DNA of 64,000 bases from Pseudobdellovibrionaceae bacterium (GTDB taxonomy: Bacteria > Bdellovibrionota > Bdellovibrionia > Bdellovibrionales > UBA1609): NCBI GenBank assembly GCA_947444305.1, contig CANEZP010000016.1, positions 1-64,000 on the forward strand, read 5' to 3'. A model generated the notes under the pieces. It saw nothing but the letters and a program-made list of their open reading frames with translations, was not told where the DNA came from and made no database searches. This document shows, in pieces, positions 38,718-59,479 of this stretch; the first letter of the stretch is position 1; every line of letters starts with the position of its first letter. The translations under genes were made by a program, and so were the position numbers.

Positions 38718-38731
<14 letters not shown>
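38177..38731 (-). CDS. actD: Alternative complex III subunit ActD (DUF3341)
   Basis: The 184-residue protein has an N-terminal soluble part ([41 protein letters not shown]), then two transmembrane helices ([20 protein letters not shown] and [22 protein letters not shown]), and a cytoplasmic tail. This is the DUF3341/ActD pattern. ATG 38731 has AGGAGG before it and overlaps the actC end by 14 bp; the longer frame was not chosen. It is a small membrane anchor subunit of the complex. Confidence 0.9.
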
Positions 38732-40081
<1,350 letters not shown>

Positions 40082-40082
<1 letters not shown>

Positions 40083-43000
40083 TAGTGACCTCCTTCAGCG
40101 GGCACGGGCGGCGGCGGCGGATCGTGCGGCGGCATGGGCGGATGACCGGGACCTGCATCGGGCGGCGGCGGACCTCCGTGCGGCAAAGGCTCCCCTGCCC
40201 GACCGTGAGCCGGAGGTTTGTGCCCTTGGCCGTGCGGCGCGCCGGGTACGGGTTCGTGAGCCGGAGCCCATTTCAACTTATCCGTGTTACGAACTTTGAC
40301 TTGGTAGCGAACCGAAGGCTTCACGTTCAATTCATCGAGCAAAGCGTAAGCCTTGGGCGAATCAAATTCACCGCGAACCATGGACTTGGTGTCGTTCAAA
40401 TCACCGAACGTAATCGCGTTCGACGGACAGCTTTGTTGGCAGGCGGTCTTCACGTCACCGTCACGAAGTTTAGTGTCGTGAACTTTGTGTTGCGCTTTGA
40501 CGCCGCGGATCCGGTGAATACAGAACGTGCACTTCTCCATAACACCGCGGTTACGAACCGTAACTTCGGGATTCAACGCCATTTGGCGCGGAGCTTTGAC
40601 GTCCGTGTAGCTGAACCAGTTAAAGCGGCGCACTTTGTACGGACAGTTGTTTGAACAGTACCGCGTACCGACGCAGCGATTGTAGATCATGTCGTTCGTG
40701 CCTTCGTCCGAGTGAACGGTGGCGATAACGGGGCAAACCGTTTCGCAAGGCGCGTTGTCACAATGCATGCACAGCAAAGGCTGATGCACGACATCGGGAT
40801 CTTCGGGCGTACCGACGTAGTAACGATCGATGCGCATCCACTGCATTTCGCGGCCGTCGATTACGTTTTTGCGGCCGACGCTGGGAATGTTGTTTTCGGA
40901 TTGGCAAGCGATCACGCACGAACCGCAACCGGTGCAGGTGTTCAAATCGACGACCATGCCCCACTTGTTGCCGTTGTACTTGTGCTCGGACCACATGGTG
41001 GTGAGATTGTGACGGTGCACTTGGCCGCCGGGATCTTTCATGTGATCGGCGAGAGTTTCTTCGACGACGATTTGCCGGCCTTCCATCACGTGGTGACCTT
41101 GGGTGACGGCAAGCTCCGTCTTTTTCGTTAATGGCTTGATCGTCGTTTCGAGACCGGCGGTGACCGCGCGTCCGTCGACCCACTGGGCGAGCGTCATCGC
41201 GTTTGCGCCGATGCCGTCGACGACCGAACCACCGCCGTTGCGACCGTAACCGAAAGCCACACCAACGACGCCGTCGGCTTGACCGGGTTGAATGTGCGCG
41301 GGCAATTCAATTTTTTTATCGCCGACGGTCAGTTGAACGTACTGGCCTTCTTTGATTTTAAGCTGAACCGAATCTTTGGGCGAAATACATGCGTAGTTGT
41401 CCCAGCAAACTTTGGTTACGGGATCAGGTAGCTCTTGCAGCCAAGGCACGTTAGCCAAACGGCCGTCGCCGATCCCGACTTTTTGGTAGATCGCCAATTC
41501 AAAGCCCGCGCGCTTAGCGGTCGGCTTCACGTTCGCTAAGGTTCCGGAAGCGAGCGAGCGTGAGCCGGCGGCGCCGTTCGAACCCTGCATCACGCCCGTT
41601 TGCAAAACGTCGTTCCAGTAATCTTCGAAGTTTAACTTGCCGGTTTTGCCGGCGCTTAACGTTTTCCAGCTGGCGTTGAGGTAATCGTACCAAGTTTCGG
41701 AAGCTTTCGCTTTGGCCGAACCTTTGCCCGCACCTTTAAGCCAAGCGAGCATGCTGTCTTGAAACGCGCGCGTGTTGTGTAAAGGCTGAATCGTGGGCTG
41801 CTGAATGCTGAGCGCGCCACCGAGCGATTGCATATCGCCCCAGTTTTCGAGCGCGTGGTGATCGGTCGCGACGTAGTCGGCCAATCGAGCGGTCTCGTCA
41901 TTGCGGTCGCCGGTGGTGATGATCATTTCGACGTTGCTCAAGGCTTCGCGGAATTTCGAATTTTCGGGCAACGAGTACACCGGGTTCGAACCATGAACGA
42001 TGAGGGTCGTGATTTCTTTTTTGTTTAAAGCGTTGAGCAAATCGCCGATCGGAGCGCCGCGCGTGACCGAGCGGCCCGTTTCGATCGTTTTGCCGTCATT
42101 TTCTAAAACGGCGTTCAAGAAATTGGCCGCGACCTGCAGAGCGACGCCGAAATCTCCGTCGGCCGACATGCCGCCCGCGAGAACCAGCGATTGACCTTTG
42201 TTCTTCCAAAGTTCTTCGGCAACTTCGCCGACGTTGATCCCGAGATCTTCGCGTGACTTCGAAAAACCCGAGAGGACGCGAACGACGCCGTCATCGCTTG
42301 CGTAGCGTGACGATTTACGAACGACGACCAATTCGTGCAACAAAGCCATAACGACGTCGAGCGATTGCGACGGACGAATGCGGTAGCGCTTATCGGCGTT
42401 ACTGCCCGTCAACGACATCAAAGATTCGAAAACGACGAGCTTGCTCATGCCCTCGGTCGATTTTTTGCGGCCCATGGCGAACTGGCGCTGGAAAGTGACC
42501 GGCGCGACCCAAGTGCCTAAGAAATCGTTATTGATCGCAACCACGATCTTTGCGCGATCGATATTGTAATTCGGAATGGTCGCGCTACCGTACGAAGCTT
42601 TTTGTGCTTCGACCAACGAGGCGTACGAAACGTCATCATATTGATAAATCTTGCCGCCGAAGGCGCCGGCGAATTCTTCCATCAGGGCTTGGGTCGTGGG
42701 CGACGAGTGATTGTGCGTAAGCAAAGCAACTTTGCCTTTGCCCAATTGCTCGGTCACCGCTTTATCGAGATCTTCCCAACGGGCGTTGATGATTTCGCGG
42801 TTCGTGCGGTTTTTATTCTGAAGATTGCGCTTGGGCGCGGTGTAACGATCGGGATCGTAAAGGCGCAAGATGTCGGCGTGCGCGCGGGAGGACATGGATC
42901 CCATGTTCGCCGGGTGATCGGGGTTACCTTCGATTTTGATCGGGCGACCGTCGCGGGTCGTAACTAAAATCCCGATCGCTTCCATCCCATCAACGAAGGA

Positions 43001-43288
43001 CGAGGCGTAGTAATTCGGTAAGCCATGAACGATGTCTTGCGGCTTTTTCGCGTAAGGAATGATCTTTTGAGCGGGCCGGCGCACGCAACCGAAAGAGGTC
43101 AGCGCGAGCGAAGCGCCCATCAGCTTTAAGAAGTCGCGGCGGGCCGTGCCGCCGACGCCGTCGCCTGATTGCAGCGGGCTCGTCCGAAATTCTTTCTCGG
43201 CAAATGTTAAAAACTCGGGATCTTGGCGCCACTGTTCTAAGCTCAGCCAAGGTTTGCCAGACGGTTTATTAGAAGAAGTTTGATCCAT
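40082..43288 (-). CDS. actB: Alternative complex III iron-sulfur subunit ActB
   Basis: The 1068-residue protein has a twin-arginine signal ([20 protein letters not shown]), a molybdopterin-oxidoreductase-like domain lacking the cofactor in known complexes, and a ferredoxin-type domain with four cysteine clusters. The clusters are [36 protein letters not shown] with the upstream CVG, and [10 protein letters not shown] with CQQSC. Known ActB holds 3[4Fe-4S] and one [3Fe-4S]. A His/Pro/Gly-rich tail of about 60 residues ends it and looks unusual for the family. It sits on the periplasmic side, passing electrons to ActA/ActE. Confidence 0.93.
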
Positions 43289-43300
43289 GTGTGCCTCGTC

Positions 43301-43834
43301 CTAGTAGTGGCAAGTGCTGCAATTTATCGGGGCGTGATTTTCTTTTTCGCGATGGCAGTTCACGCAAAAGCCCATCGACAAGCTTTGGACTTGTTTGACC
43401 TTCTCCATCTCGGCCACGTTGCCGTGACAAACGGTACAGTCTTTACCCGCTTTGATGTGCGGAGCGTGATTGAACTTCACGTGATCGGGCAACAGGTTGA
43501 CCTTGTTCCACGCGATGGATTTGCCCGAATTGTAAGCCTCGGTCAGCTTTTGAATGTGTGGGCTGTCGGTCTTAACGACCAAGTGACAATTCATGCAGAT
43601 ATTAAGAGGAGGAACCGAAGCGTGGCGCGATTTGTCTACGCCCGTGTGGCAGTACTTACAGTTGATCTGCAATTGGCCCGCGTGCTGCTTATGGGAATAA
43701 GGAATGGGTTGGTCGGGTTCGTAGCCTTTGTTGTATCCGATAACGATTTTGTTGTTGGTGAGTGCCCAAATGAACACCGACAAACCGCCCAACAGGCCGA
43801 ATACAACGACGGCACCTACGATCTTTTTCGCCAT
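43301..43834 (-). CDS. actA: Alternative complex III pentahaem cytochrome c ActA
   Basis: The 177-residue product has an N-terminal membrane anchor (GAVVVFGLLGGLSVFIWAL) and five CxxCH motifs: CKYCH, CMNCH, CTVCH, CVNCH and CSTCH. This is the five-haem count of ActA. His residues at SHKQHAG and FNHAPH could be distal ligands. It opens the act operon and is 86 bp downstream of ccsA, so the haem-insertion genes are probably read into it or share a promoter region. Confidence 0.95.
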   Translation of the reverse strand: MAKKIVGAVVVFGLLGGLSVFIWALTNNKIVIGYNKGYEPDQPIPYSHKQHAGQLQINCKYCHTGVDKSRHASVPPLNICMNCHLVVKTDSPHIQKLTEAYNSGKSIAWNKVNLLPDHVKFNHAPHIKAGKDCTVCHGNVAEMEKVKQVQSLSMGFCVNCHREKENHAPINCSTCHY

Positions 43835-43920
43835 AGCTAGGACCTTCTGATCACGTCAAGGTTGCAAAAAAACTTTCTCAGTTAGCTTTTAATTAATAAA
43901 TCCTTGAACTTAATGAGTCA

Positions 43921-45546
43921 TCATTTCGATTGAGAATTTTGCCGTGTGTAACGCACTGTTGAAACATACGCGACGTACAACAGATGAAGCACGACAAAAC
44001 CCGTGACGTACTCGACCCCACCCGCACCGAATCCGTAACTATGAAGTCCCGCACCCAAAACGAAGTTCACTCCGTACCAAGCCATGATCACGAGAGCGAA
44101 CGAAATAATCGCGCCGCACGCGAGCTGAAAATCTTTAACCAATCCGGCTAAGCGTCCGTGCAGTAGCGCGAGATAGCCCATCAACGCGATAAAGGCCCAA
44201 GTCTCTTTCGGGTCCCAGCCCCAAAATCTTCCCCACGAATAATCGGCCCAAACGCCGCCCAAAATTGTACCGGCGGCGAGCAATACGATTCCGATTTGGA
44301 GTGCGCGATAGATGCTCATCGTGCCGTTGCGGATTTGCACGGCGTACTTTTTTTCGTCCTTTAAATAGAAGAACAAAAGCAAATCACCCAGCGCGAAGGC
44401 CAAGAAAAAAGCGGCATAGCTGATAGTGATTATCAGTACATGGGTGCTAAGCCAGAAAGTCGAACGCAACACGGGCTCGAGCGGATGAATACTTGAATCC
44501 AAAACCGTCGGCGCGAGATCGGTTAAGATCAAACAAAAGACGGCGACCGTGGCCGAGCACATCAGCAATAATTTGTTTTTCTGAACGCGTTCGAGAATGA
44601 AGCTGAAAAGCACCGATCCCCAAGGCACCCAAACGACCGTCTCGTACATGTTCGTCACCGGCGGGCGGCCCGACAAATACGAACGCAAAATCATACCGTA
44701 CGTGTGCAACCCGAAACCAAGCGCGAGGAAGATCCACGAAGCGGTGTTCATAGACTTACGTGGCGAGAAATAATTGAAGGTTAAGCAGATCACACCGAGC
44801 AAGTACGCGATCCACGCCCATTTAAAAGGATGAAACTTGTTAAGATGTTCTTCCCAACCGATCTTCGTCATGTTGGCGTACTTCTCGGGAGCCTGGGCTC
44901 TCGCGACCGCGATAAATTCGGTCACCGCCGACTTAAACTCTTCGCTCGGCTTGGGATTCTTGCCACCGTCGGCCGCGATCGAGTCGACGAAACCTTTCGA
45001 CATCTTCATGAAGGCCGCTTGTGCATCGCCTTGAAGTTCGGGCACCGACTTCCATTTGTCGGAAGCGGGATCAGGCACGAAGCGGAGCGCCTCGCCTTTG
45101 CGGATGGCCTGAAAAAGACCAAGCTGATTCTCGAGCCGCTGGACGGCTTGGTAATAAGGATTCAACTTTTCTTGCCGGGTACGGATCGTATTGAGTTCTT
45201 GCAGAATAAGCGGCACGCGCTCGTTGGAGAATAAACTCTGGGCCGAGAAGTGTTTTTCGGTCGAGGTAATCTTCAGCGCTTCTTTAAGCCCTGCGTGGCG
45301 AACCTCAATCAACGGCAGCGTCAGCCAGTGATCGGGGACCAGCATCCACGTGAAGACCACTTCGCTCGCCGACTTATCTTCGTACTTTTTCTTACCGTAA
45401 ATTAGCTGCAAGCTTTCGCCGGCGAAGGTGCCGAACGGCTTTATCCGGCCGGCGTCTTGAATCGGCAAACCGTTAATGGGCTCCCCGACTTGCGCGAACG
45501 CGGTGCTTGCTAAAAGCAATAACGGTAAGAGAATAAATTTGATCAC
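43921..45546 (-). CDS. ccsA: Cytochrome c biogenesis protein CcsA/ResC-like
   Basis: The 541-residue protein has an N-terminal signal and extended periplasmic domain (about 20-230), then about eight helices. The haem-handling motif WGRFWGWDPKETWAFIALMGYLALLHGRL (WGxxWxWD type) is present, along with conserved histidines such as LSTHVLIITISY and GLHSYG. It is the haem-exporting/ligating half of system II. Start GTG overlaps the ResB stop (GTGA). The large N-terminal periplasmic domain is longer than in typical CcsA. Confidence 0.9.
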   Translation of the reverse strand: MIKFILLPLLLLASTAFAQVGEPINGLPIQDAGRIKPFGTFAGESLQLIYGKKKYEDKSASEVVFTWMLVPDHWLTLPLIEVRHAGLKEALKITSTEKHFSAQSLFSNERVPLILQELNTIRTRQEKLNPYYQAVQRLENQLGLFQAIRKGEALRFVPDPASDKWKSVPELQGDAQAAFMKMSKGFVDSIAADGGKNPKPSEEFKSAVTEFIAVARAQAPEKYANMTKIGWEEHLNKFHPFKWAWIAYLLGVICLTFNYFSPRKSMNTASWIFLALGFGLHTYGMILRSYLSGRPPVTNMYETVVWVPWGSVLFSFILERVQKNKLLLMCSATVAVFCLILTDLAPTVLDSSIHPLEPVLRSTFWLSTHVLIITISYAAFFLAFALGDLLLFFYLKDEKKYAVQIRNGTMSIYRALQIGIVLLAAGTILGGVWADYSWGRFWGWDPKETWAFIALMGYLALLHGRLAGLVKDFQLACGAIISFALVIMAWYGVNFVLGAGLHSYGFGAGGVEYVTGFVVLHLLYVAYVSTVRYTRQNSQSK

Positions 45547-49229: not shown

Positions 49230-49400
49230 CTAGAGTGGACTACGTCCGCTATTACCCAATAGATTTTGGGCGCGGGCAAGTCCGACCGCTAAAAAACGCT
49301 TGAGAACTCCCGTCCGCACGCCGCCGTCAAGGTAGAGTTCTAGACCGAGCATCGCCCCCGATGATTGCGTTTCGTCATCAACTCCGACGTTAGCCCCAAC
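49230..49400 (-). pseudogene. Possible gene remnant beyond the HNH stop
   Basis: In the frame shifted from the HNH gene, a protein-like stretch runs VGANVGVDDETQSSGAMLG and continues through LELYLDGGVR to AQNLLGN before a stop at 49230. It has alternating hydrophobics and few rare residues, as in the tail of a beta-barrel or exported protein, but has no start or ribosome binding site of its own. It could be the C-terminal remnant of a gene disrupted by the HNH gene. Weak evidence. Confidence 0.2.
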
Positions 49401-50334
49401 GCTCCAATTGAAAATGCATCTGATGAATATGATCGTGGTGAAACGAACAAAGCGTCGTGAGGTTCTCGGGATCGTTTTCACCCCCGTGCGCGACCTCTAG
49501 AATATGATGAATTTGAATCCACTGATCCGAGCCGCAACGCTTGCCGTTTTCACTCAAGTGCGTACACTGCCCAGAATCCCGAGCGAACACCGCGTGCTTC
49601 TGCGCCGCGGTCAATGGCACTCGCTTCGGAGCTCTGCGCGCGCAGAGTTCTTCGGGTTTGGCCAAATGATCATTTTGTTGTTGGATCTCTTCCGCGTTCT
49701 TTTTTAGGGCCGCCTTTGGCATCTTTGATCTTTGCTCTCGCGCCTTCCGATCCTGCGCACGTTCGGCTTTCTGGACGGGATCGTGCTTACGCAAATACTC
49801 TTCCAACGCCGCTTCGAGCGCGCATCCGACACCAATCGGCTGATTCTTCTGCGCGCGCAGAGCTTCGACTCGTTTTAGCTTCTCTAGAAACTCACCCGAA
49901 ACATGCGCCGAAATCTCAACGCACTCTTCAGATATGAACTTAACCTTTTCACATTTACTTCGCGGATTACGCCGGTCTAACTCTCGCTCGAGCTCGCGAC
50001 TTGAATGCGTTTGAGCGAAAAGGATAAGCTCAGCCGCATTTTCGGGCTTCAAAGTCGAAACCATACGATTCAAAACAAAAACCGAAAGCCCCGACTCTAA
50101 TATCTCCGGCACTTCACGCGACTTTCGAGCCACCGCGATAAAGCTGTAAGCGACGGCATCCGTAAATCCTAAAATCTCAACCGCGTAAGCGTGGACACTC
50201 GATTTGTCCAAAGCCTTATGCGTCCGACTTTGCTCGACATCTTTTAGAATCTGCACGAACTCAAGTTCAAATTTATGATAGCGAACTTTCGCCGCCAACG
50301 CACACTCATGAATCCATTTTTGTTCAGCATTCAT
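49390..50334 (-). CDS. HNH endonuclease, Bdellovibrio-type
   Basis: The 314-residue product starts at ATG 50334 after AAGGAGA. Its N-terminal half resembles the helical domain common in Bdellovibrio HNH proteins (LGFTDAVAYSFIAVARKSREVPEILESGLSV, then SSRELERELDRRNPR). The C-terminal HNH domain has CTHLSENGKRC, IHHILEVAHGG with the catalytic-type His pair, NPENLTTLCSFHH and the last His. It should cut DNA; target unknown. The gene carries two copies of a GC palindrome in two different reading frames (49632-49647 and 49848-49861). No methyltransferase partner is nearby, so it does not look like a simple restriction system. Confidence 0.85.
   Translation of the reverse strand: MNAEQKWIHECALAAKVRYHKFELEFVQILKDVEQSRTHKALDKSSVHAYAVEILGFTDAVAYSFIAVARKSREVPEILESGLSVFVLNRMVSTLKPENAAELILFAQTHSSRELERELDRRNPRSKCEKVKFISEECVEISAHVSGEFLEKLKRVEALRAQKNQPIGVGCALEAALEEYLRKHDPVQKAERAQDRKAREQRSKMPKAALKKNAEEIQQQNDHLAKPEELCARRAPKRVPLTAAQKHAVFARDSGQCTHLSENGKRCGSDQWIQIHHILEVAHGGENDPENLTTLCSFHHDHIHQMHFQLERWG
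49632..49647. repeat. CTCTGCGCGCGCAGAG palindrome, copy A (inside HNH gene)
   Basis: A perfect 16-bp palindrome that codes ELCARRA in the HNH frame. Related palindromes lie at 49848-49861, 50572-50579 (shortened) and 50612-50631. Confidence 0.85.
49848..49861. repeat. TCTGCGCGCGCAGA palindrome, copy B (inside HNH gene)
   Basis: A perfect 14-bp palindrome that codes ALRAQK in the HNH frame, a different phase from copy A. The phase change means the DNA sequence, not the peptide, is what recurs. Confidence 0.8.
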
Positions 50335-50570
50335 CTTTGTCTCCTTAAGTTGGAGTGAAGCTAACACGGGTTTTAAAATCGACATCTTGAGCTTGATGCA
50401 TCTCGCTTATAGTTCGTTGTTAAAGCTACTTACCGGGCGGATATGGCACGCGACTTTGCCGTTTTGAATTTCAAATCAAATTTTGGGAATGAAACGTGCT
50501 AGCGCTTCATTTGCGAGCCGTCAACGTCGTCAAATTATATTTACGTGGAGAAAAAATGTTAAATATCTTT

Positions 50571-52993: not shown

Positions 52994-55339
52994 ATGAACT
53001 GTAAACCCATCGTGACCGGACTTTTGTTCCTCACGCTTGCCACGCCGTCGGTGTGGGCTCAAGCTAAGGACAAGAAAAAAGCTCCGCAGCGCAGGCTCGC
53101 GCAAGAAGACGTGGGTTTCGATGAACCCGAGATGCTTCCCCCACCTCCCTCCGCTCCTACGCCGACGCCTCCGGCGGGTTCGCCCGGCGCGACCGGTAAA
53201 ACTAAGGACGGCAAACCCGTTCAAGGTTTTGTTTCGAAAAAGACCGGGAAGTCTTTAGCGGAAGCCGGCGTCGAAGACATCACCAACGAAAACTTCCCCG
53301 ACATGATCGAATCGTTCGATTACCCGAACGCGGACGTCGCCGATCTCGTGAAAGCGATCTCGGAACTAACGGGCAAAAACTTCGTCGTCGATCCGCAAGT
53401 GCGCGGTAAGATCACGATCATCGCGCCTTCGCGCTTAACGGTGGCCGAGGCGTACAAAGCCTTCTTGTCGGCCCTCGCAATTAACGGTCTCGCGATCGTG
53501 CCCGGCGACGGCTTCTACAAGATTAAACAAGCGCGCGCCGCCCAACGTGACAACATCGATACGTTCTCGGGTGCTTACTACCCGAACTCCGATCAGATGA
53601 TCACGCGGATCATCAAGCTCAAGTACATCTCGGCCGACGAAGTGAACAAACAGCTTCGTATCCTGACTTCGAAAGACGGCGAACTCGTTCCCTACACGCC
53701 CACTAACTCTTTGATCGTTTCGGACTACGGCGCCAACATGGACCGCATCATGAAGATCTTGGAGCAACTCGACGTTCAAGGCTTCGAAGAGCAGATGGAA
53801 GTTATCCGCGTGCGCTTCGCGCGCTCGAAAGACATCGGCGACTTGGTCGATCAGATCATCAACAAAGGCGAAAAGAAAAATCAATTCGGTACGGGCGTGC
53901 CCCGCTTCCGTCCCGCCGGCGGACCTGAGTCCGGTGGCGGTACGGGCGCCGAAGTTTACTCCCTCGTCGTGCCCGACGAACGCACGAACTCGATCATCGT
54001 GGTCGGTAACAAGATGGGGATCGAAAAGATCCGCAAACTTGTGAGCCGCCTCGATTACCCGATGCGCCCCGACGAACAAGGTGGCTTCTTCGTGTACTCG
54101 CTTCGTCATGCCGAAGCCGAGCCCATCGCCAACATCTTGAACGGCATCGCTTCCGAATCTAAGAAAGCGCAAGATTCCGGCGGCGCGGCCGGCGGAAATC
54201 GACCGCCCGTCATCGGCCCCGGCGGCCAAGCGCAAGTCGGCCCCGCAGCGACCGCGATCTTCGGCGGCGACGTCAAGATCTCGGCCGACAAAACGACCAA
54301 CAGCTTGATCATCGTCGCTTCCCGCCCCGATTACGAAACGCTCAAAAATCTTTTGGGCAAAATCGATATCGCGCGCGATCAAGTTTTCATCAAAGCGATC
54401 ATTATGGAAATGAACGCGGGTAAAACCGATTCTTGGTCGGTCGATGCGTACAAGTTCGCGGCGAACACCAACGGCGTCGGTCGCTTCGGGTTCCGCGGTT
54501 CGCAAGAAGTTTCGTCCTTGATCAACCCGTCGGGTGACCGCGGCGCGATCTTAGGCTTCGGGAACGGCGGCATCACAGATATCAAGATCGGCGCGGAGAC
54601 CTTCAAAGTTCCGTCTTTGATCGCTTTGGTGCGTCTGCTTACCACTCACGCTAACGGTCACATCTTGTCCACTCCGCAGATCATGGCGCTGGATAACGAA
54701 GAAGCGTTGATCGAAGTCGGAGCGAAAGTTCCCGTCGCTTTGAATGCCTCGACCGCAACCGCCGGTGTTGTCACTTCAAACGTTGAACGACAAAACGTAA
54801 CGACCAAGTTGACGCTTACTCCTTACATCTCGCCCGATACGGACGAAGTGCAAATGAAGGTCGATCAAGAGGTCGCCGATATTTCGACGACGCAGCAAAG
54901 CTCGGCCGGTGAATTGGCTAAGAACGCGATCTCGACCGACACTCGTAAAATCAAGACGCAAATCATCGTGAATAGCGGCGACACCGCGGTGCTCGGTGGT
55001 TTGATGAAAGACGTGGATAAAGAAGACGTCACCAAGGTTCCGATCTTGGGTGATATCCCGATCCTCGGTTGGTTGTTCAAAGCGCAGACGAAGCAAAAGA
55101 TTAAGAGCAATCTCGTGGTTTTCATCACCCCGAAAATCGTTCGTAATCCCGGCGACGGCGCGAAACTCGTCGACGACAAGATCAACGAGCGCATCGACTT
55201 CATCCAGAAGAACATGAGCGGTCGTGATCCCCACGGCAGCGCGATCGATAACCTGCCCCGCCTAGGTTCGGCGAAGTCGAAGAAAGAAAAAGACTCCGCC
55301 GCTCCCGCCCCCGAAGAGCCCGCGGTCGAATCGTTCTAG
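52994..55339 (+). CDS. gspD: Type II secretion system secretin GspD
   Basis: The 781-residue protein has a signal peptide (MNCKPIVTGLLFLTLATPSVWAQA) and a Pro-rich linker. The N0-N1-N2-N3 domains follow, including YPNADVADLVKAISELTGKNFVVDPQVRGKITI, DQMITRIIKLKYISADEVNKQLRIL and FFVYSLRHAEAEPIANILNGIAS. The secretin domain comes next (ALIEVGAKVPVA, VTTKLTLTPYISPDTDEV, NSGDTAVLGGLMKD, VPILGDIPILGWLF). It forms the outer-membrane channel. AAGGAGGGG precedes the start. The tail is short, without a clear S-domain. Confidence 0.97.
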   Translation: MNCKPIVTGLLFLTLATPSVWAQAKDKKKAPQRRLAQEDVGFDEPEMLPPPPSAPTPTPPAGSPGATGKTKDGKPVQGFVSKKTGKSLAEAGVEDITNENFPDMIESFDYPNADVADLVKAISELTGKNFVVDPQVRGKITIIAPSRLTVAEAYKAFLSALAINGLAIVPGDGFYKIKQARAAQRDNIDTFSGAYYPNSDQMITRIIKLKYISADEVNKQLRILTSKDGELVPYTPTNSLIVSDYGANMDRIMKILEQLDVQGFEEQMEVIRVRFARSKDIGDLVDQIINKGEKKNQFGTGVPRFRPAGGPESGGGTGAEVYSLVVPDERTNSIIVVGNKMGIEKIRKLVSRLDYPMRPDEQGGFFVYSLRHAEAEPIANILNGIASESKKAQDSGGAAGGNRPPVIGPGGQAQVGPAATAIFGGDVKISADKTTNSLIIVASRPDYETLKNLLGKIDIARDQVFIKAIIMEMNAGKTDSWSVDAYKFAANTNGVGRFGFRGSQEVSSLINPSGDRGAILGFGNGGITDIKIGAETFKVPSLIALVRLLTTHANGHILSTPQIMALDNEEALIEVGAKVPVALNASTATAGVVTSNVERQNVTTKLTLTPYISPDTDEVQMKVDQEVADISTTQQSSAGELAKNAISTDTRKIKTQIIVNSGDTAVLGGLMKDVDKEDVTKVPILGDIPILGWLFKAQTKQKIKSNLVVFITPKIVRNPGDGAKLVDDKINERIDFIQKNMSGRDPHGSAIDNLPRLGSAKSKKEKDSAAPAPEEPAVESF

Positions 55340-55384: not shown

Positions 55385-55414
55385 AAAGGCCGCGGTCACG
55401 CGGCCTTTTGTTTT
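55385..55414 (+). terminator. Intrinsic terminator after gspD
   Basis: AAAGGCCGCG (55385-55394) pairs with CGCGGCCTTT (55399-55408) around GTCA, followed by TGTTTT. It is a strong rho-independent terminator that should end the gspCD transcript, so the following genes need their own promoter. Confidence 0.85.
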
Positions 55415-55473: not shown

Positions 55474-55501
55474 TTGTTCGTCACCGCACAGCCGCTATAC
55501 A
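55474..55501 (+). promoter_or_regulatory. Candidate promoter for the cassette and gspE-K
   Basis: TTGTTC (55474-55479) and TATACA (55496-55501) are 16 bp apart, about 120 bp before the first gene. Its position right after a strong terminator supports it. Confidence 0.4.
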
Positions 55502-55623
55502 CAAATCTTGTTTCACTCTGGGGCGACGTCTCGTAAGTCTACGAAACGAGGTCTAAAATTTTTATGGCCGCCCCTTTGCTAAGTAGTAAGGCAGAACACT
55601 CCACCCGAACCTTAGGATTGAAC

Positions 55624-56235
55624 ATGAAAGCCGCCCTAGTCCTACTGTTAGCGATCTTCACGGCCCCGCTCGCCGGTGCTGAATCTATCGCTACGGGTGG
55701 TACTTTCGACGGCATCGCCCGCATCTTCACCTCTTGCGAAAACTGCAAGACGATGGAAAAGCTGCGTACCGAAGTGTTTGCTCCCGCCCACACCAACGCC
55801 CGCATGCACGACCGCGCGAAGAAGGCGGTAGGCAAAGTGATCGAAGACGCTCACCGTATTACGACCGTCGCCGAGAACGATAAAAAACAATTTCGCGGCG
55901 CCCACTACGCAAACGAAATCGAATCGTTCTTCATCCTCGCCGTCGACGCTATGCCCTACGCCGAAGATTTCGAATTGGCCGAAAACATTGCCTACATCAA
56001 TAACGAACTCGGTAGCCGCTCGATCCTCGAAAAAGTCGTTAAGGAAATGCCCGCCGGTTGCCGCAAAGACTTCGTCGTAAAATCCATCGTTTACAAAGAA
56101 TGCGAAATCGACAACGACAACGCGGCCGATGCCGCGCAGACCGCCGGCAAACCGGTTCCGAAGAAACTCGTCTGTAAGCCGCCGACCGATAACGTACAGA
56201 AGTGCGAAGCGAAAGCTATCGCCCGGGTGAAGTGA
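55624..56235 (+). CDS. Six-cysteine exported protein, first of a T2SS-embedded cassette
   Basis: The 203-residue product starts at ATG 55624 with a signal peptide (MKAALVLLLAIFTAPLAGA). Cysteines form CENC (38/41), a helical middle (about 50-140), then Cys146 and Cys160 (13 residues between), Cys184 and Cys194. The third gene of the cassette has the same pattern (29/32, 132/146, 163/174), so the two are probably paralogues. No family was recognised. TGATG joins it to the next gene. Export into the periplasm and then secretion by the neighbouring T2SS is a guess from position. Confidence 0.75.
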   Translation: MKAALVLLLAIFTAPLAGAESIATGGTFDGIARIFTSCENCKTMEKLRTEVFAPAHTNARMHDRAKKAVGKVIEDAHRITTVAENDKKQFRGAHYANEIESFFILAVDAMPYAEDFELAENIAYINNELGSRSILEKVVKEMPAGCRKDFVVKSIVYKECEIDNDNAADAAQTAGKPVPKKLVCKPPTDNVQKCEAKAIARVK

Positions 56236-57140
56236 TGAAACACCTCGCCCTTCTACTCATTATATATCTACCTTTGCAGGCATCAGCCGGAGCGTTCATG
56301 TTCGGCTCGGCTCCGAATGCAGCACCAGCGCCCGTGGCCGCTACGACACCCGTTCAGGCCGCAACGCCGAAAGCGGTTGGGACTTCGCAATTGAATTCGC
56401 CCTCACCTATCCGTAGAACGATGCCGGAGATCGCCGCCGCGTTGGCTTCGGCCGACAGCAAAACGGTCAAAGAAGATAAAAAAACCGAAGGCGGAATCTG
56501 CGTTGGTTGCGGGCCCACTACCGCTCCGAAGACCGGCCTGCAAAAGATTGATCCTTCGCACATCGCCGGCGCGACCCCGAAAGCGGTGGAAACGCGGGCT
56601 TCCAACTCAAACGGTAACGAATGTTTAAGAAAACTTATCCTCGCGTCGGCAAAGAACGTCGTTAAAAACATTTACGGCAATGCGCCCACGAGCGGTGGCT
56701 GGTGCGCAAAAGGCGTCGGTCGCAGCTTGATGAAAGCGGGCTACCAGTATCCCAGCGCCGAAGCCATCGGTTACCACACCGGCGGCCGTATGAAGCAAAT
56801 GGGTTTCGAAAATATCATGCGCAAAGGCTTAGACGCCGAGAACGCACCCCCCGGCGCCATCTTGGTATTCCGCGGTCCTTTGACGAAGATGTCACGCGCT
56901 AACGGCGGCTTGCCCCAAGGCAAAACACGCATGCAATCACGCCGTTTACGCGGTGGACGCGGCGCCGGCACATGGGTCGGGCACGTTACGATCAAGAGCG
57001 ATAAACCGGATGAATATCTGACCGACGCCTTGACCGAGGATCCCGCGGTTGCCAACCGGACCCTCGTCGCTATATATGTCCCGGTGACTTGTTCTGGTGT
57101 AACTTGTAAGGGTGCAGCCGCCCGGGCCTGCGTGGAGTAG
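56235..57140 (+). CDS. Exported CHAP/NlpC-like putative cell-wall hydrolase
   Basis: The 301-residue product has a signal peptide (MKHLALLLIIYLPLQASAG) and an Ala/Pro-rich linker with ATPKAV twice. A C-terminal domain has SGGWCAKGVGRSLMKAGY (Cys157), PPGAILVFRGP, and GTWVGHVTIKSDK (His250). A Cys at a helix start, a Pro-Gly-Asp/Ala-like turn and a later GH strand are the arrangement of CHAP/NlpC amidases; the residues fit but the family match is loose. It sits between two six-cysteine paralogues. It might be an endopeptidase or amidase acting on peptidoglycan. Confidence 0.55.
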   Translation: MKHLALLLIIYLPLQASAGAFMFGSAPNAAPAPVAATTPVQAATPKAVGTSQLNSPSPIRRTMPEIAAALASADSKTVKEDKKTEGGICVGCGPTTAPKTGLQKIDPSHIAGATPKAVETRASNSNGNECLRKLILASAKNVVKNIYGNAPTSGGWCAKGVGRSLMKAGYQYPSAEAIGYHTGGRMKQMGFENIMRKGLDAENAPPGAILVFRGPLTKMSRANGGLPQGKTRMQSRRLRGGRGAGTWVGHVTIKSDKPDEYLTDALTEDPAVANRTLVAIYVPVTCSGVTCKGAAARACVE

Positions 57141-57143
57141 AAG

Positions 57144-57689
57144 ATGAATAAATTAACGATGTTTACCACAATCATGATCTTCTCTTCGCTGACGGGTACC
57201 GCCAACGCGAAAGCGGCGAAAGGCTCTTGCGCCCGCTGCCCCGAGGTTCAAAAGCTTGAAGGCGACTTCACCGCTTACGAATACGCAAAGAAAGAAGACC
57301 GCTCCGCCGGCCGCCAGAAGATGGTTAGCGTTTTGGCGCAACTCGAGCGTTTTCACACGGCAAAAGGACGCAATCCCACCCGCGGGGAAGAGTTTCGCGC
57401 CTTGGTGAAGTTGACCGCCGCGGCCGGCCCGTACGATCAGGGCAGCGAAGCGGCCGAAAGCCTCGCCTCGCTCATCGTTGATTCCGCCGAGCTCAAAGGC
57501 ATCTTCAACGAAGTGGCCGGCTCAGTCTCCGATTCGTGCCGCCAGCAATTGCTGCGCACCACGGTTGACCAACGCCTTTGCCAAATTGAATTCGACGATC
57601 GCTCGGGCACGCTTAGCCAAGCCGAAGCTTGCATCCGCCGCCCCGTTTTTAATTACCGCGAATGCGTCGGCTTCAAAGTTAACGAATAA
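57144..57689 (+). CDS. Six-cysteine exported protein, third of the cassette
   Basis: The 181-residue product has a signal peptide (MNKLTMFTTIMIFSSLTGTANA). Cysteines are at 29 and 32 (CARC), 132 and 146, 163 and 174; the CxxC and the 13-residue gap between the third and fourth match the first cassette gene. Both have CR-(K/Q)-(D/Q) at the third cysteine and (E/Q)-C-(E/Q)-I-(D/E)-x-D at the fourth. The body between is helical and charged. Function unknown; possibly an inhibitor, chaperone or partner of the middle protein. Confidence 0.75.
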   Translation: MNKLTMFTTIMIFSSLTGTANAKAAKGSCARCPEVQKLEGDFTAYEYAKKEDRSAGRQKMVSVLAQLERFHTAKGRNPTRGEEFRALVKLTAAAGPYDQGSEAAESLASLIVDSAELKGIFNEVAGSVSDSCRQQLLRTTVDQRLCQIEFDDRSGTLSQAEACIRRPVFNYRECVGFKVNE

Positions 57690-57790: not shown

Positions 57791-59479
57791 ATGGCATCAC
57801 CGACATTTGAGAATCTGATCAAAAAAGGCACCAGCGTTAGCGAAGAGCAATTGCAATCGTTGCTTCGTTCTAGCGATCCGAAGGGCATCCCGCTCAGTGA
57901 GTTGCTCTCGAAAATGACCTTTAATACGCCCGAAGAAGCGCTTGCCGAACTTTGCCGGCACTTGCACGTCGATTACATCAAAGAAATTCCGGTGAACGAT
58001 ATCGCGGTCGACATGGTCCGCGGTATTCCGATCAACTACGCAAAGACGCAAGAAGTTTTGCCTTATAAAGAAGAGGCCGACCGCGTTTTGGTGCTTACGA
58101 CCAATCCGCTCAATCACAAAGCACTCGAAGATTTGCGCGTGAAGTTCGGTAAAAAAATTCATCCCTTGGCTACGACCTCGAGCCGCATCCAAGACGCCAT
58201 CAACCGCGTTTACGAAAAATCAACCGCGGCGCTCGAAGGGATGGAAGAGATCGACGGCGAAGAAGTGGATCTCGACGATCCCGTTATCGATTTGCTCGAT
58301 TCAGGCGATGACGACGCGCCGGTTATTAAATTGGTAAACACGCTTTTGTTCCGCGCGGTGAAAGAGAAAGCTTCCGATATTCACGTTGAGCCTTACGAAC
58401 GCGACATGGTCGTACGCTTCCGTATCGATGGCGTGTTATTTGATATTTTCAAACCGCCAAAGAAGCTACAAAACTCGATCACCTCGCGTATCAAGATCAT
58501 GGGAAATTTGAACATCGCCGAAAAGCGCTTGCCGCAAGATGGTCGGATCCCGCTCAAGCTTGCCGGTAAAGACATCGACGTTCGTTTGAGCTCGGTTCCC
58601 ACCGCGCACGGCGAACGCTTGGTTATGCGTCTGCAAGATAGATCCAACGTCGTCCTTGAGCTGCAACAGCTTGGTTTCTCGCCCGACTCGCTGATCAAGA
58701 TCGACAACTTGATGGCGAAAACCTACGGCATCTTTTTGGTCACCGGCCCAACCGGTTCGGGTAAGTCGACGACGCTGTACGCCGCCATTTCAAAAATCAA
58801 TAAGCCCGACATCAACATCATCACGGTTGAAGATCCGGTGGAGCAACGGATCCACGGCATCGGGCAGATCCAGGTTAACTCGAAGATCGGTTTAACTTTC
58901 GCGAGCGGTCTGCGCTCGATTCTGCGGCAAGATCCCGACGTCGTCATGATCGGGGAGATTCGCGATTTGGAAACCGCCGAGATCGCGATCAACGCTTCGC
59001 TGACCGGTCACTTAGTGGTCTCCACCATTCACACGAACGATTCGGCCGGCGCTTTTCCCCGTCTGATTGATATGGGTTGCGAACCGTTTTTGATCGCGAC
59101 GTCGATCATGGGCGTGGGCGCTCAGCGCTTGGTGCGCTTACTCTGTCCCCACTGCAAAGAGCCGCACGAACCGACGGCGGTTGAACTGCGCTCGCTCGAG
59201 ATCAGCCCCGAGATGGCTCGGTCCGCAACTTTCTTCAAGGCCGTGGGCTGCAACCACTGCAATCAAAAAGGTTACATCGGCCGAAGCGTTATCCAAGAGT
59301 TGATGCTGATCAACGACGATATCCGCTCGCTCATCATGAAACGCGCCGACGGTGCCACTATTAAGCGCGAAGCGATTAAATCCGGCATGACGACTTTCCG
59401 GGATCACGGGATCCAAAAAGTTTTAAGCGGCGTGACGACGATCGAAGAAGTCCTGACTTCCACCCAGATGGATGCGTAA
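57791..59479 (+). CDS. gspE: Type II secretion system ATPase GspE
   Basis: The 562-residue protein has an N-terminal MshEN-type domain (about 1-130). A central region ([35 protein letters not shown]) follows, then the Walker [11 protein letters not shown] (about 317-326), Asp and His boxes ([50 protein letters not shown]), and the zinc tetracysteine CPHC...CNHC (about 451-490). It drives pseudopilus assembly from the cytoplasm, on GspF and the inner-membrane platform. Confidence 0.97.

What the first reader, a model, noticed from the sequence alone, without database searches (positions are those of the whole stretch)
55474..57689. Three-gene exported cassette inserted between gspD and gspE
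A terminator after gspD and a candidate promoter set off three exported genes before gspE. The outer two share six cysteines with matching spacing (CxxC; C-x13-C; C-x9/10-C) and CR/(E/Q)C(E/Q)I motifs, so they are likely paralogues. The middle one has Cys157 and His250 in CHAP/NlpC-like contexts. The layout (partner-hydrolase-partner) hints at a secreted cell-wall enzyme with dedicated companions, chaperones or inhibitors, handled by the T2SS. I know of no such standard module.
Basis: partly seen in the sequence, partly recalled or inferred. Interest (0 to 1): 0.65.

Follow-up and report, generated by a model that had tools for sequence, protein, structure and literature searches.

The report
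Exported wall-cutting enzyme with paired partners
Inside the protein-export gene cluster of a Bdellovibrio relative sits an exported cell-wall-cutting enzyme, related to a known antibacterial toxin domain (Tae3), between two copies of a partner protein that probably keeps it harmless or helps it fold, and related bacteria carry other cell-wall enzymes at the same spot.

Summary
The three genes are real: all have signal peptides, ORF1 and ORF3 are homologous, ORF1 and ORF2 overlap by one base. ORF2 belongs to a Bdellovibrionota-wide family whose profile matches the type VI amidase effector Tae3 (PDB 4hz9, E 4.7e-7); its predicted structure aligns best with Tae3 (Z 14.4, 2.0 A over 112 residues). 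No T6SS sheath gene was found in 47 genomes of the family. About 22 of 36 family members sit directly in front of a small exported protein; ORF3, and through it ORF1, belong to that partner family, so the trio is a recurrent two-gene unit with the partner duplicated. gspD-gspE is normally closed (64 of 70 other genomes); in this genus and its neighbour all five genomes carry exported hydrolases there, of different families. I infer a secreted peptidoglycan amidase whose partners are periplasmic inhibitors (immunity); a Lif-type foldase role is the main rival. Neither activity nor T2SS export was tested.

The parts
52994..55339 (+). gspD secretin, upstream boundary
   Evidence: Pfam Secretin 3.7e-47, GspD N0 1.3e-23
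55385..55408 (+). intrinsic terminator after gspD
   Evidence: 10-bp GC-rich stem plus T tail; region z -5.4
55624..56235 (+). ORF1: exported six-cysteine partner protein, 203 aa (duplicate of ORF3)
   Evidence: signal peptide MKAALVLLLAIFTAPLAGA; homology to ORF3 E 1e-6, shuffle test; no detectable relative elsewhere in the order with the two-row profile
56235..57140 (+). ORF2: exported Tae3-like peptidoglycan amidase, 301 aa; CxxC 89/92, predicted triad Cys157, His250, Asp264
   Evidence: family profile against PDB 4hz9 E 4.7e-7; VIA Z 14.4 to Tae3; conserved C, H, D columns
56484..57137 (+). stretch modelled: CxxC linker plus catalytic domain (residues 84-301)
   Evidence: AlphaFold2 mean pLDDT 71, core blocks 83-94
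57144..57689 (+). ORF3: exported six-cysteine partner protein, 181 aa, all-helical model
   Evidence: phmmer 4e-10 to the partner downstream of the nearest ORF2 relative (L147); profile-profile prob 88.6 to the Bdellovibrionota partner family; model all-helical, pLDDT 74
57791..59479 (+). gspE ATPase, downstream boundary
   Evidence: Pfam T2SSE 2.3e-143

Best explanation
The trio is an exported peptidoglycan hydrolase with a duplicated cognate partner. ORF2 has a Tae3-type papain-like (NlpC/CHAP superfamily) amidase domain with a predicted Cys157-His250-Asp264 centre behind a signal peptide and a CxxC linker; it is expected to cut peptide bonds of peptidoglycan in other cells (prey or competitors), leaving the producer through its outer membrane, plausibly by the T2SS in whose operon it lies. 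ORF3 and its copy ORF1 are small, probably disulphide-bonded helical periplasmic proteins that most likely bind ORF2 in the periplasm and block its active site until export, i.e. they act as immunity/inhibitor proteins in the manner of Tai3 for Tae3 or Bd3460 for the Bdellovibrio DD-endopeptidases. In this clade the gspD-gspE junction is a site where different hydrolase cassettes have been inserted or replaced. Shown by computation: fold and family, conserved C/H/D, signal peptides, homology of partners, conserved hydrolase-partner gene order, junction turnover. Inferred: amidase activity, substrate, inhibition by the partners, export by the T2SS, use in predation.
For: Tae3: profile hit E 4.7e-7, and 7.7e-5 with a second alignment; predicted structure ranks 4hz9/4hzb (Tae3-Tai3 complex, R. 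pickettii) first at Z 14.4, 2.0 A, 112 residues, ahead of an endolysin at 11.6 and NlpC/P60 enzymes at about 10. Conserved Cys, Gly-His and Asp in 29 members. Family in 62 of 141 genomes of the order, also in Bacteriovorax, Halobacteriovorax, Sphingomonas and Verrucomicrobia. A tightly linked small exported gene follows 19 of 36 members by a strict rule (22 by inspection), against 7 of 369 background genes; also in Bacteriovoracales. ORF3 resembles the partner of the nearest ORF2 relative, which the hydrolase tree also places closest (100/92): the pair travels together. Partners diverge faster than the catalytic domain in 78 of 78 comparisons, as immunity proteins do, though not only they. No T6SS sheath gene in 47 family genomes. 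Junction: closed in 64 of 70 other genomes; hydrolases in 5 of 5 of this clade. Precedents: Tae3/Tai3 (PMC6099711), Bd3460 (PMC4686830).
Against: No activity, binding or secretion data. The ORF3 model matches nothing significantly, and Tai3 was not among the listed matches, so similarity to Tai3 is only 'small and helical'. Foldseek alone gave no significant match for the ORF2 model. ORF1 alone has no significant similarity to partners other than ORF3. 14 of 36 family members lack a partner, including a solo copy in this genome. T2SS-linked specific chaperones (LipB/Lif, CpaB; PMC4713064) are also exported proteins with a dedicated substrate. The five junction genomes are close relatives, so 5 of 5 is not five independent draws.
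Confidence: 0.5

Rival explanations
1. The partners are enzyme-specific periplasmic foldases or export chaperones, as Lif is for T2SS lipases and CpaB for CpaA: they fold ORF2 and release it to the T2SS rather than protect the cell.
For: Gene next to its substrate, exported, helical, fast-evolving; cassette lies inside a T2SS operon. T2SS substrates with dedicated membrane-associated chaperones are documented (PMC4713064, PMC13381987). Cysteine-rich enzyme and partners.
Against: Partners seem to carry a cleavable signal peptide rather than the membrane anchor typical of Lif (reading of the sequences). Most homologous pairs lie away from T2SS genes. The related Tae3 is paired with an inhibitor (PMC6099711).
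Confidence: 0.27
2. The enzyme is an ordinary housekeeping or prey-digesting wall hydrolase co-secreted with a structural or targeting subunit; the T2SS position is accidental.
For: Solo members without a partner exist, including in this genome; unrelated insertions at the same junction occur elsewhere (outer-membrane-like protein, ABC exporter, YceI-like).
Against: Recurrent hydrolases at one junction in five of five clade genomes, of different families and, for the two Tae3-like ones, in separate places in the tree.
Confidence: 0.18
3. A mobile or defence-type toxin-antitoxin locus that merely uses the site.
For: Y1-transposase-like gene in the G001 junction; cassette phylogeny differs from species relations.
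Against: No mobile genes and no base-composition shift at the window site; all three products exported; extracytoplasmic wall-enzyme fold.
Confidence: 0.05

Closest known systems
Tae3-Tai3, T6SS amidase effector and immunity protein (Ralstonia pickettii, PDB 4hz9/4hzb)
   Same: Catalytic fold (Z 14.4), sequence profile (E 4.7e-7), conserved Cys and His, dedicated small partner (PMC6099711)
   Different: ORF2 has a signal peptide, N-terminal extension and CxxC linker; no T6SS sheath gene in the family; partner shares no detectable sequence or fold with Tai3 in these searches
Bdellovibrio DD-endopeptidases Bd0816/Bd3459 with self-protection protein Bd3460
   Same: Predator's secreted wall enzyme with a specific self-protection protein (PMC4686830; PMC10482364 calls it a co-expressed immunity protein)
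   Different: Different enzyme family and different (ankyrin) inhibitor fold
T2SS substrate-chaperone pairs (LipA-LipB/Lif, CpaA-CpaB)
   Same: Exported specific partner of a T2SS substrate (PMC4713064)
   Different: Those substrates are not Tae3-like wall amidases; no sequence relation was found here
CHAP / NlpC-P60 peptidoglycan hydrolases
   Same: Same superfamily; weak CHAP hits in 8 of 29 members (best 0.0013); NlpC/P60 structures at Z about 9-10
   Different: ORF2 itself has no Pfam hit; Tae3 is clearly closer

Membership tests
Tae3-type amidase domain | Sequence profile similarity to Tae3 | tested here: met
   hmmsearch of the family profile, 4hz9 E 4.7e-7 and 7.7e-5; a single-sequence search with ORF2 does not find it
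Tae3-type amidase domain | Tae3 fold | tested here: met
   VIA Z 14.4, 2.0 A over 112 of 118 residues, top rank; second look only, Foldseek alone not significant
Tae3-type amidase domain | Catalytic Cys and His | tested here: met
   Cys157 invariant, His250 in 27 of 29 members
Tae3-type amidase domain | Peptidoglycan amidase activity | not testable with these tools
   needs enzyme assay
T6SS effector Tae3 proper | Delivered by a T6SS | tested here: not met
   No TssC/VipB (PF05943) in 47 of 47 family genomes including this one; the control rings in E. coli; ORF2 has a Sec signal peptide
Tai3 immunity family | Sequence or fold similarity of ORF1/ORF3 to Tai3 | tested here: inconclusive
   No PDB sequence match; helical model without significant match
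Effector-immunity pair (mode of action) | Partner gene directly linked to the enzyme gene across relatives | tested here: met
   19-22 of 36 loci against 7 of 369 background; also in Bacteriovoracales
Effector-immunity pair (mode of action) | Partner binds and inhibits the enzyme | not testable with these tools
   needs co-purification and activity assay
T2SS substrate | Signal peptide, disulphide-capable exported protein, and T2SS-dependent secretion | tested here: inconclusive
   Signal peptide and cysteines present and gene in the operon; secretion not testable
Lif-type foldase | Relation to known foldases, membrane anchor | tested here: inconclusive
   No Pfam hit for ORF1 or ORF3 above the cut-off; anchor judged only by eye

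The most novel reading that the evidence does not exclude
In this lineage of predator relatives the gspD-gspE junction is a dedicated exchange site for T2SS cargo: interchangeable peptidoglycan hydrolases (Tae3-like amidases, LAS-type, M23 peptidases), most marked by a CxxC element and each followed by its own cognate inhibitor, making a T2SS-delivered effector-immunity system in bacteria without a T6SS.
Probability: 0.25. Interest if true: 0.85.

Novelty: new variant of a known kind. Interest (0 to 1): 0.62.

Why it matters
If right, bacteria of a predatory lineage without a type VI secretion system use relatives of a T6SS toxin domain as freely exported wall enzymes and guard themselves with dedicated partner proteins. 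That extends the one characterised self-protection protein (Bd3460) to a broad, recognisable class of enzyme-partner pairs, gives functions to dozens of unannotated Bdellovibrionota genes, and names a T2SS locus where cargo can be tested directly by deleting gspD or gspE.

Tried and rejected
Single-sequence searches of ORF1-3 in Pfam, PHROGs and PDB found nothing useful; a genome-contig scan with ORF2 alone found no relative, and the 29-row alignment was too divergent for the pattern search. Foldseek alone on the ORF2 model gave no significant match, VIA on its ranked chains did. ORF3 fold searches gave only generic helical repeats, best Z 8.1, within noise for helical models. Tai3 homology of the partners: not found. 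Horizontal acquisition judged by base composition: no signal. A T6SS in the family: none found. The 1557-nt gap in G122 is a break in gspD itself, not an insertion. Pfam does not recognise the hydrolase-like proteins of G001 and G002; they are called LAS-type by the motif HxxHxxGxxxD...HxH only. Papers on Bdellovibrio with immunity, CHAP or T2SS terms showed no description of this family.

Full report
Observation. The window carries a T2SS operon; gspC, gspD, gspE were checked by family models and the others by position. Three short genes for exported proteins separate gspD from gspE. ORF1 and ORF3 are truly homologous. A good terminator follows gspD; a sigma-70 promoter was not found by consensus.

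What ORF2 is. Alone it hits nothing. Two weak relatives in the same taxonomic family and one at the same junction of a congener (G003) were enough for a profile that found members in 62 of 141 genomes of the order. The 29-row alignment has an invariant Cys, the motifs AP.GA.LVY and GH.EIK, and an invariant Asp. This profile matches PDB 4hz9 (E 4.7e-7). The AlphaFold2 model of residues 84-301, made with 37 sequences, is closest to 4hz9/4hzb, titled 'type VI effector-immunity complex Tae3-Tai3 from Ralstonia pickettii' (Z 14.4 and 13.9). Endolysins, NlpC/P60 enzymes and Tae4 follow at lower Z. ORF2 is therefore a Tae3-like domain in a Sec-exported protein. A T6SS sheath protein is absent from all 47 genomes of the family, so T6SS delivery is not the route.

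What ORF1 and ORF3 are. In 19 of 36 order loci (strict rule; 22 by inspection) the hydrolase gene overlaps or abuts a small gene for an exported protein; the same arrangement follows only 7 of 369 other genes in these genomes. It recurs in Bacteriovorax and Halobacteriovorax, many partners ending in GNG. ORF3 is similar to the partner of L147 (E 4e-10 in a 23-sequence set), sharing CxxC, C-x13-C and AAGPYD; a profile of ORF1, ORF3 and L147 matches the wider partner family with probability 88.6. The hydrolase tree also puts ORF2 with L147, from another family, with support 100/92. Enzyme and partner have thus travelled together, and the window differs by a second, upstream copy of the partner. 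Partners always diverge faster than the catalytic domain (78 of 78 pairs). The ORF3 model is all-helical.

The junction. In 64 of 70 other genomes with a readable junction gspD and gspE lie within about 370 nt, mostly overlapping or a few bases apart; five carry unrelated insertions and one gap is a broken gspD (also for G009 and G032). In the window's genus and its nearest neighbour all five genomes have exported hydrolases there: the window trio; G003 with a Tae3-like protein and a partner, placed elsewhere in the tree, on a long branch; G001 with an exported 102-aa CxxC protein, a LAS-motif hydrolase and a 147-aa exported protein, behind a Y1-transposase-like gene, its contig ends overlapping by 43 bases with one mismatch so that gspE follows; G002 with a LAS-motif protein overlapping a 135-aa exported protein on the other strand; G014 with two M23 peptidases and small exported proteins, where gspD and gspE lie on different contigs so closure is not proven. 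LAS-motif relatives elsewhere also have an overlapping exported partner similar to that of G001. These genomes are relatives, so the count is descriptive, but the enzymes are of at least three families.

How it probably works. An exported Tae3-like amidase would be dangerous in the producer's own periplasm. Tae3 is blocked by insertion of a loop of Tai3 into its active site (PMC6099711), and Bdellovibrio blocks two of its own endopeptidases with Bd3460 (PMC4686830). By analogy ORF1 and ORF3 hold ORF2 inactive until export. A Lif- or CpaB-like chaperone role (PMC4713064) fits the genomic facts almost as well and cannot be excluded by sequence. Export by the T2SS is suggested by position in this clade only; elsewhere the same units lie away from it.

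Limits.

Noticed in passing
window 56499-56510 (CVGC of ORF2); L205, L206, L246, many Tae3-like loci: A CxxC element, often (K)TExGxCxxC, precedes the catalytic domain in unrelated exported hydrolases (21 of 36 Tae3-like; G001 LAS-type; M23 of G014 and G003). Among 16 M23 ORFs the three with an internal CxxC are exactly the three with a tightly linked small downstream gene (Fisher p 0.002; one further CxxC lies in a signal peptide). Possibly a handling or sorting element.
   Followed up: partly
L127, L155, L156: Three Tae3-like members have Asp in place of the catalytic His (GDVQIK/GDIQIK) yet keep the Cys and a partner gene: pseudo-enzymes or altered chemistry.
   Followed up: no
L211, L212, L214, L215, L217 and L205: A second hydrolase-partner unit: LAS-motif enzyme, mostly with SH3-like N-terminal repeats, followed at once by an exported partner of about 140-200 aa, several with a DWS..S.F.G-like motif.
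   Followed up: partly
L166-L171, L174, L176: Sphingomonas and Novosphingobium proteins fuse LysM repeats, a Tae3-like domain and a C-terminal extension, followed by a lipoprotein-like gene of about 300 aa with Cys-Ala-Asp motifs.
   Followed up: no
L142 (G000:C5:160000-164500) and L144-L146: All four genomes of the genus keep a solo Tae3-like protein of about 220 aa without a partner gene.
   Followed up: no
L205 2026-2718: Y1 (IS200/RAYT-like) transposase gene between gspD and the hydrolase cassette in G001.
   Followed up: no
window 38718-45546 (-): NrfD, molybdopterin/4Fe-4S and cytochrome c assembly genes in a row, resembling an alternative complex III cluster.
   Followed up: no
window 49390-50385 (-): HNH endonuclease-domain protein close to the T2SS operon.
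   Followed up: no
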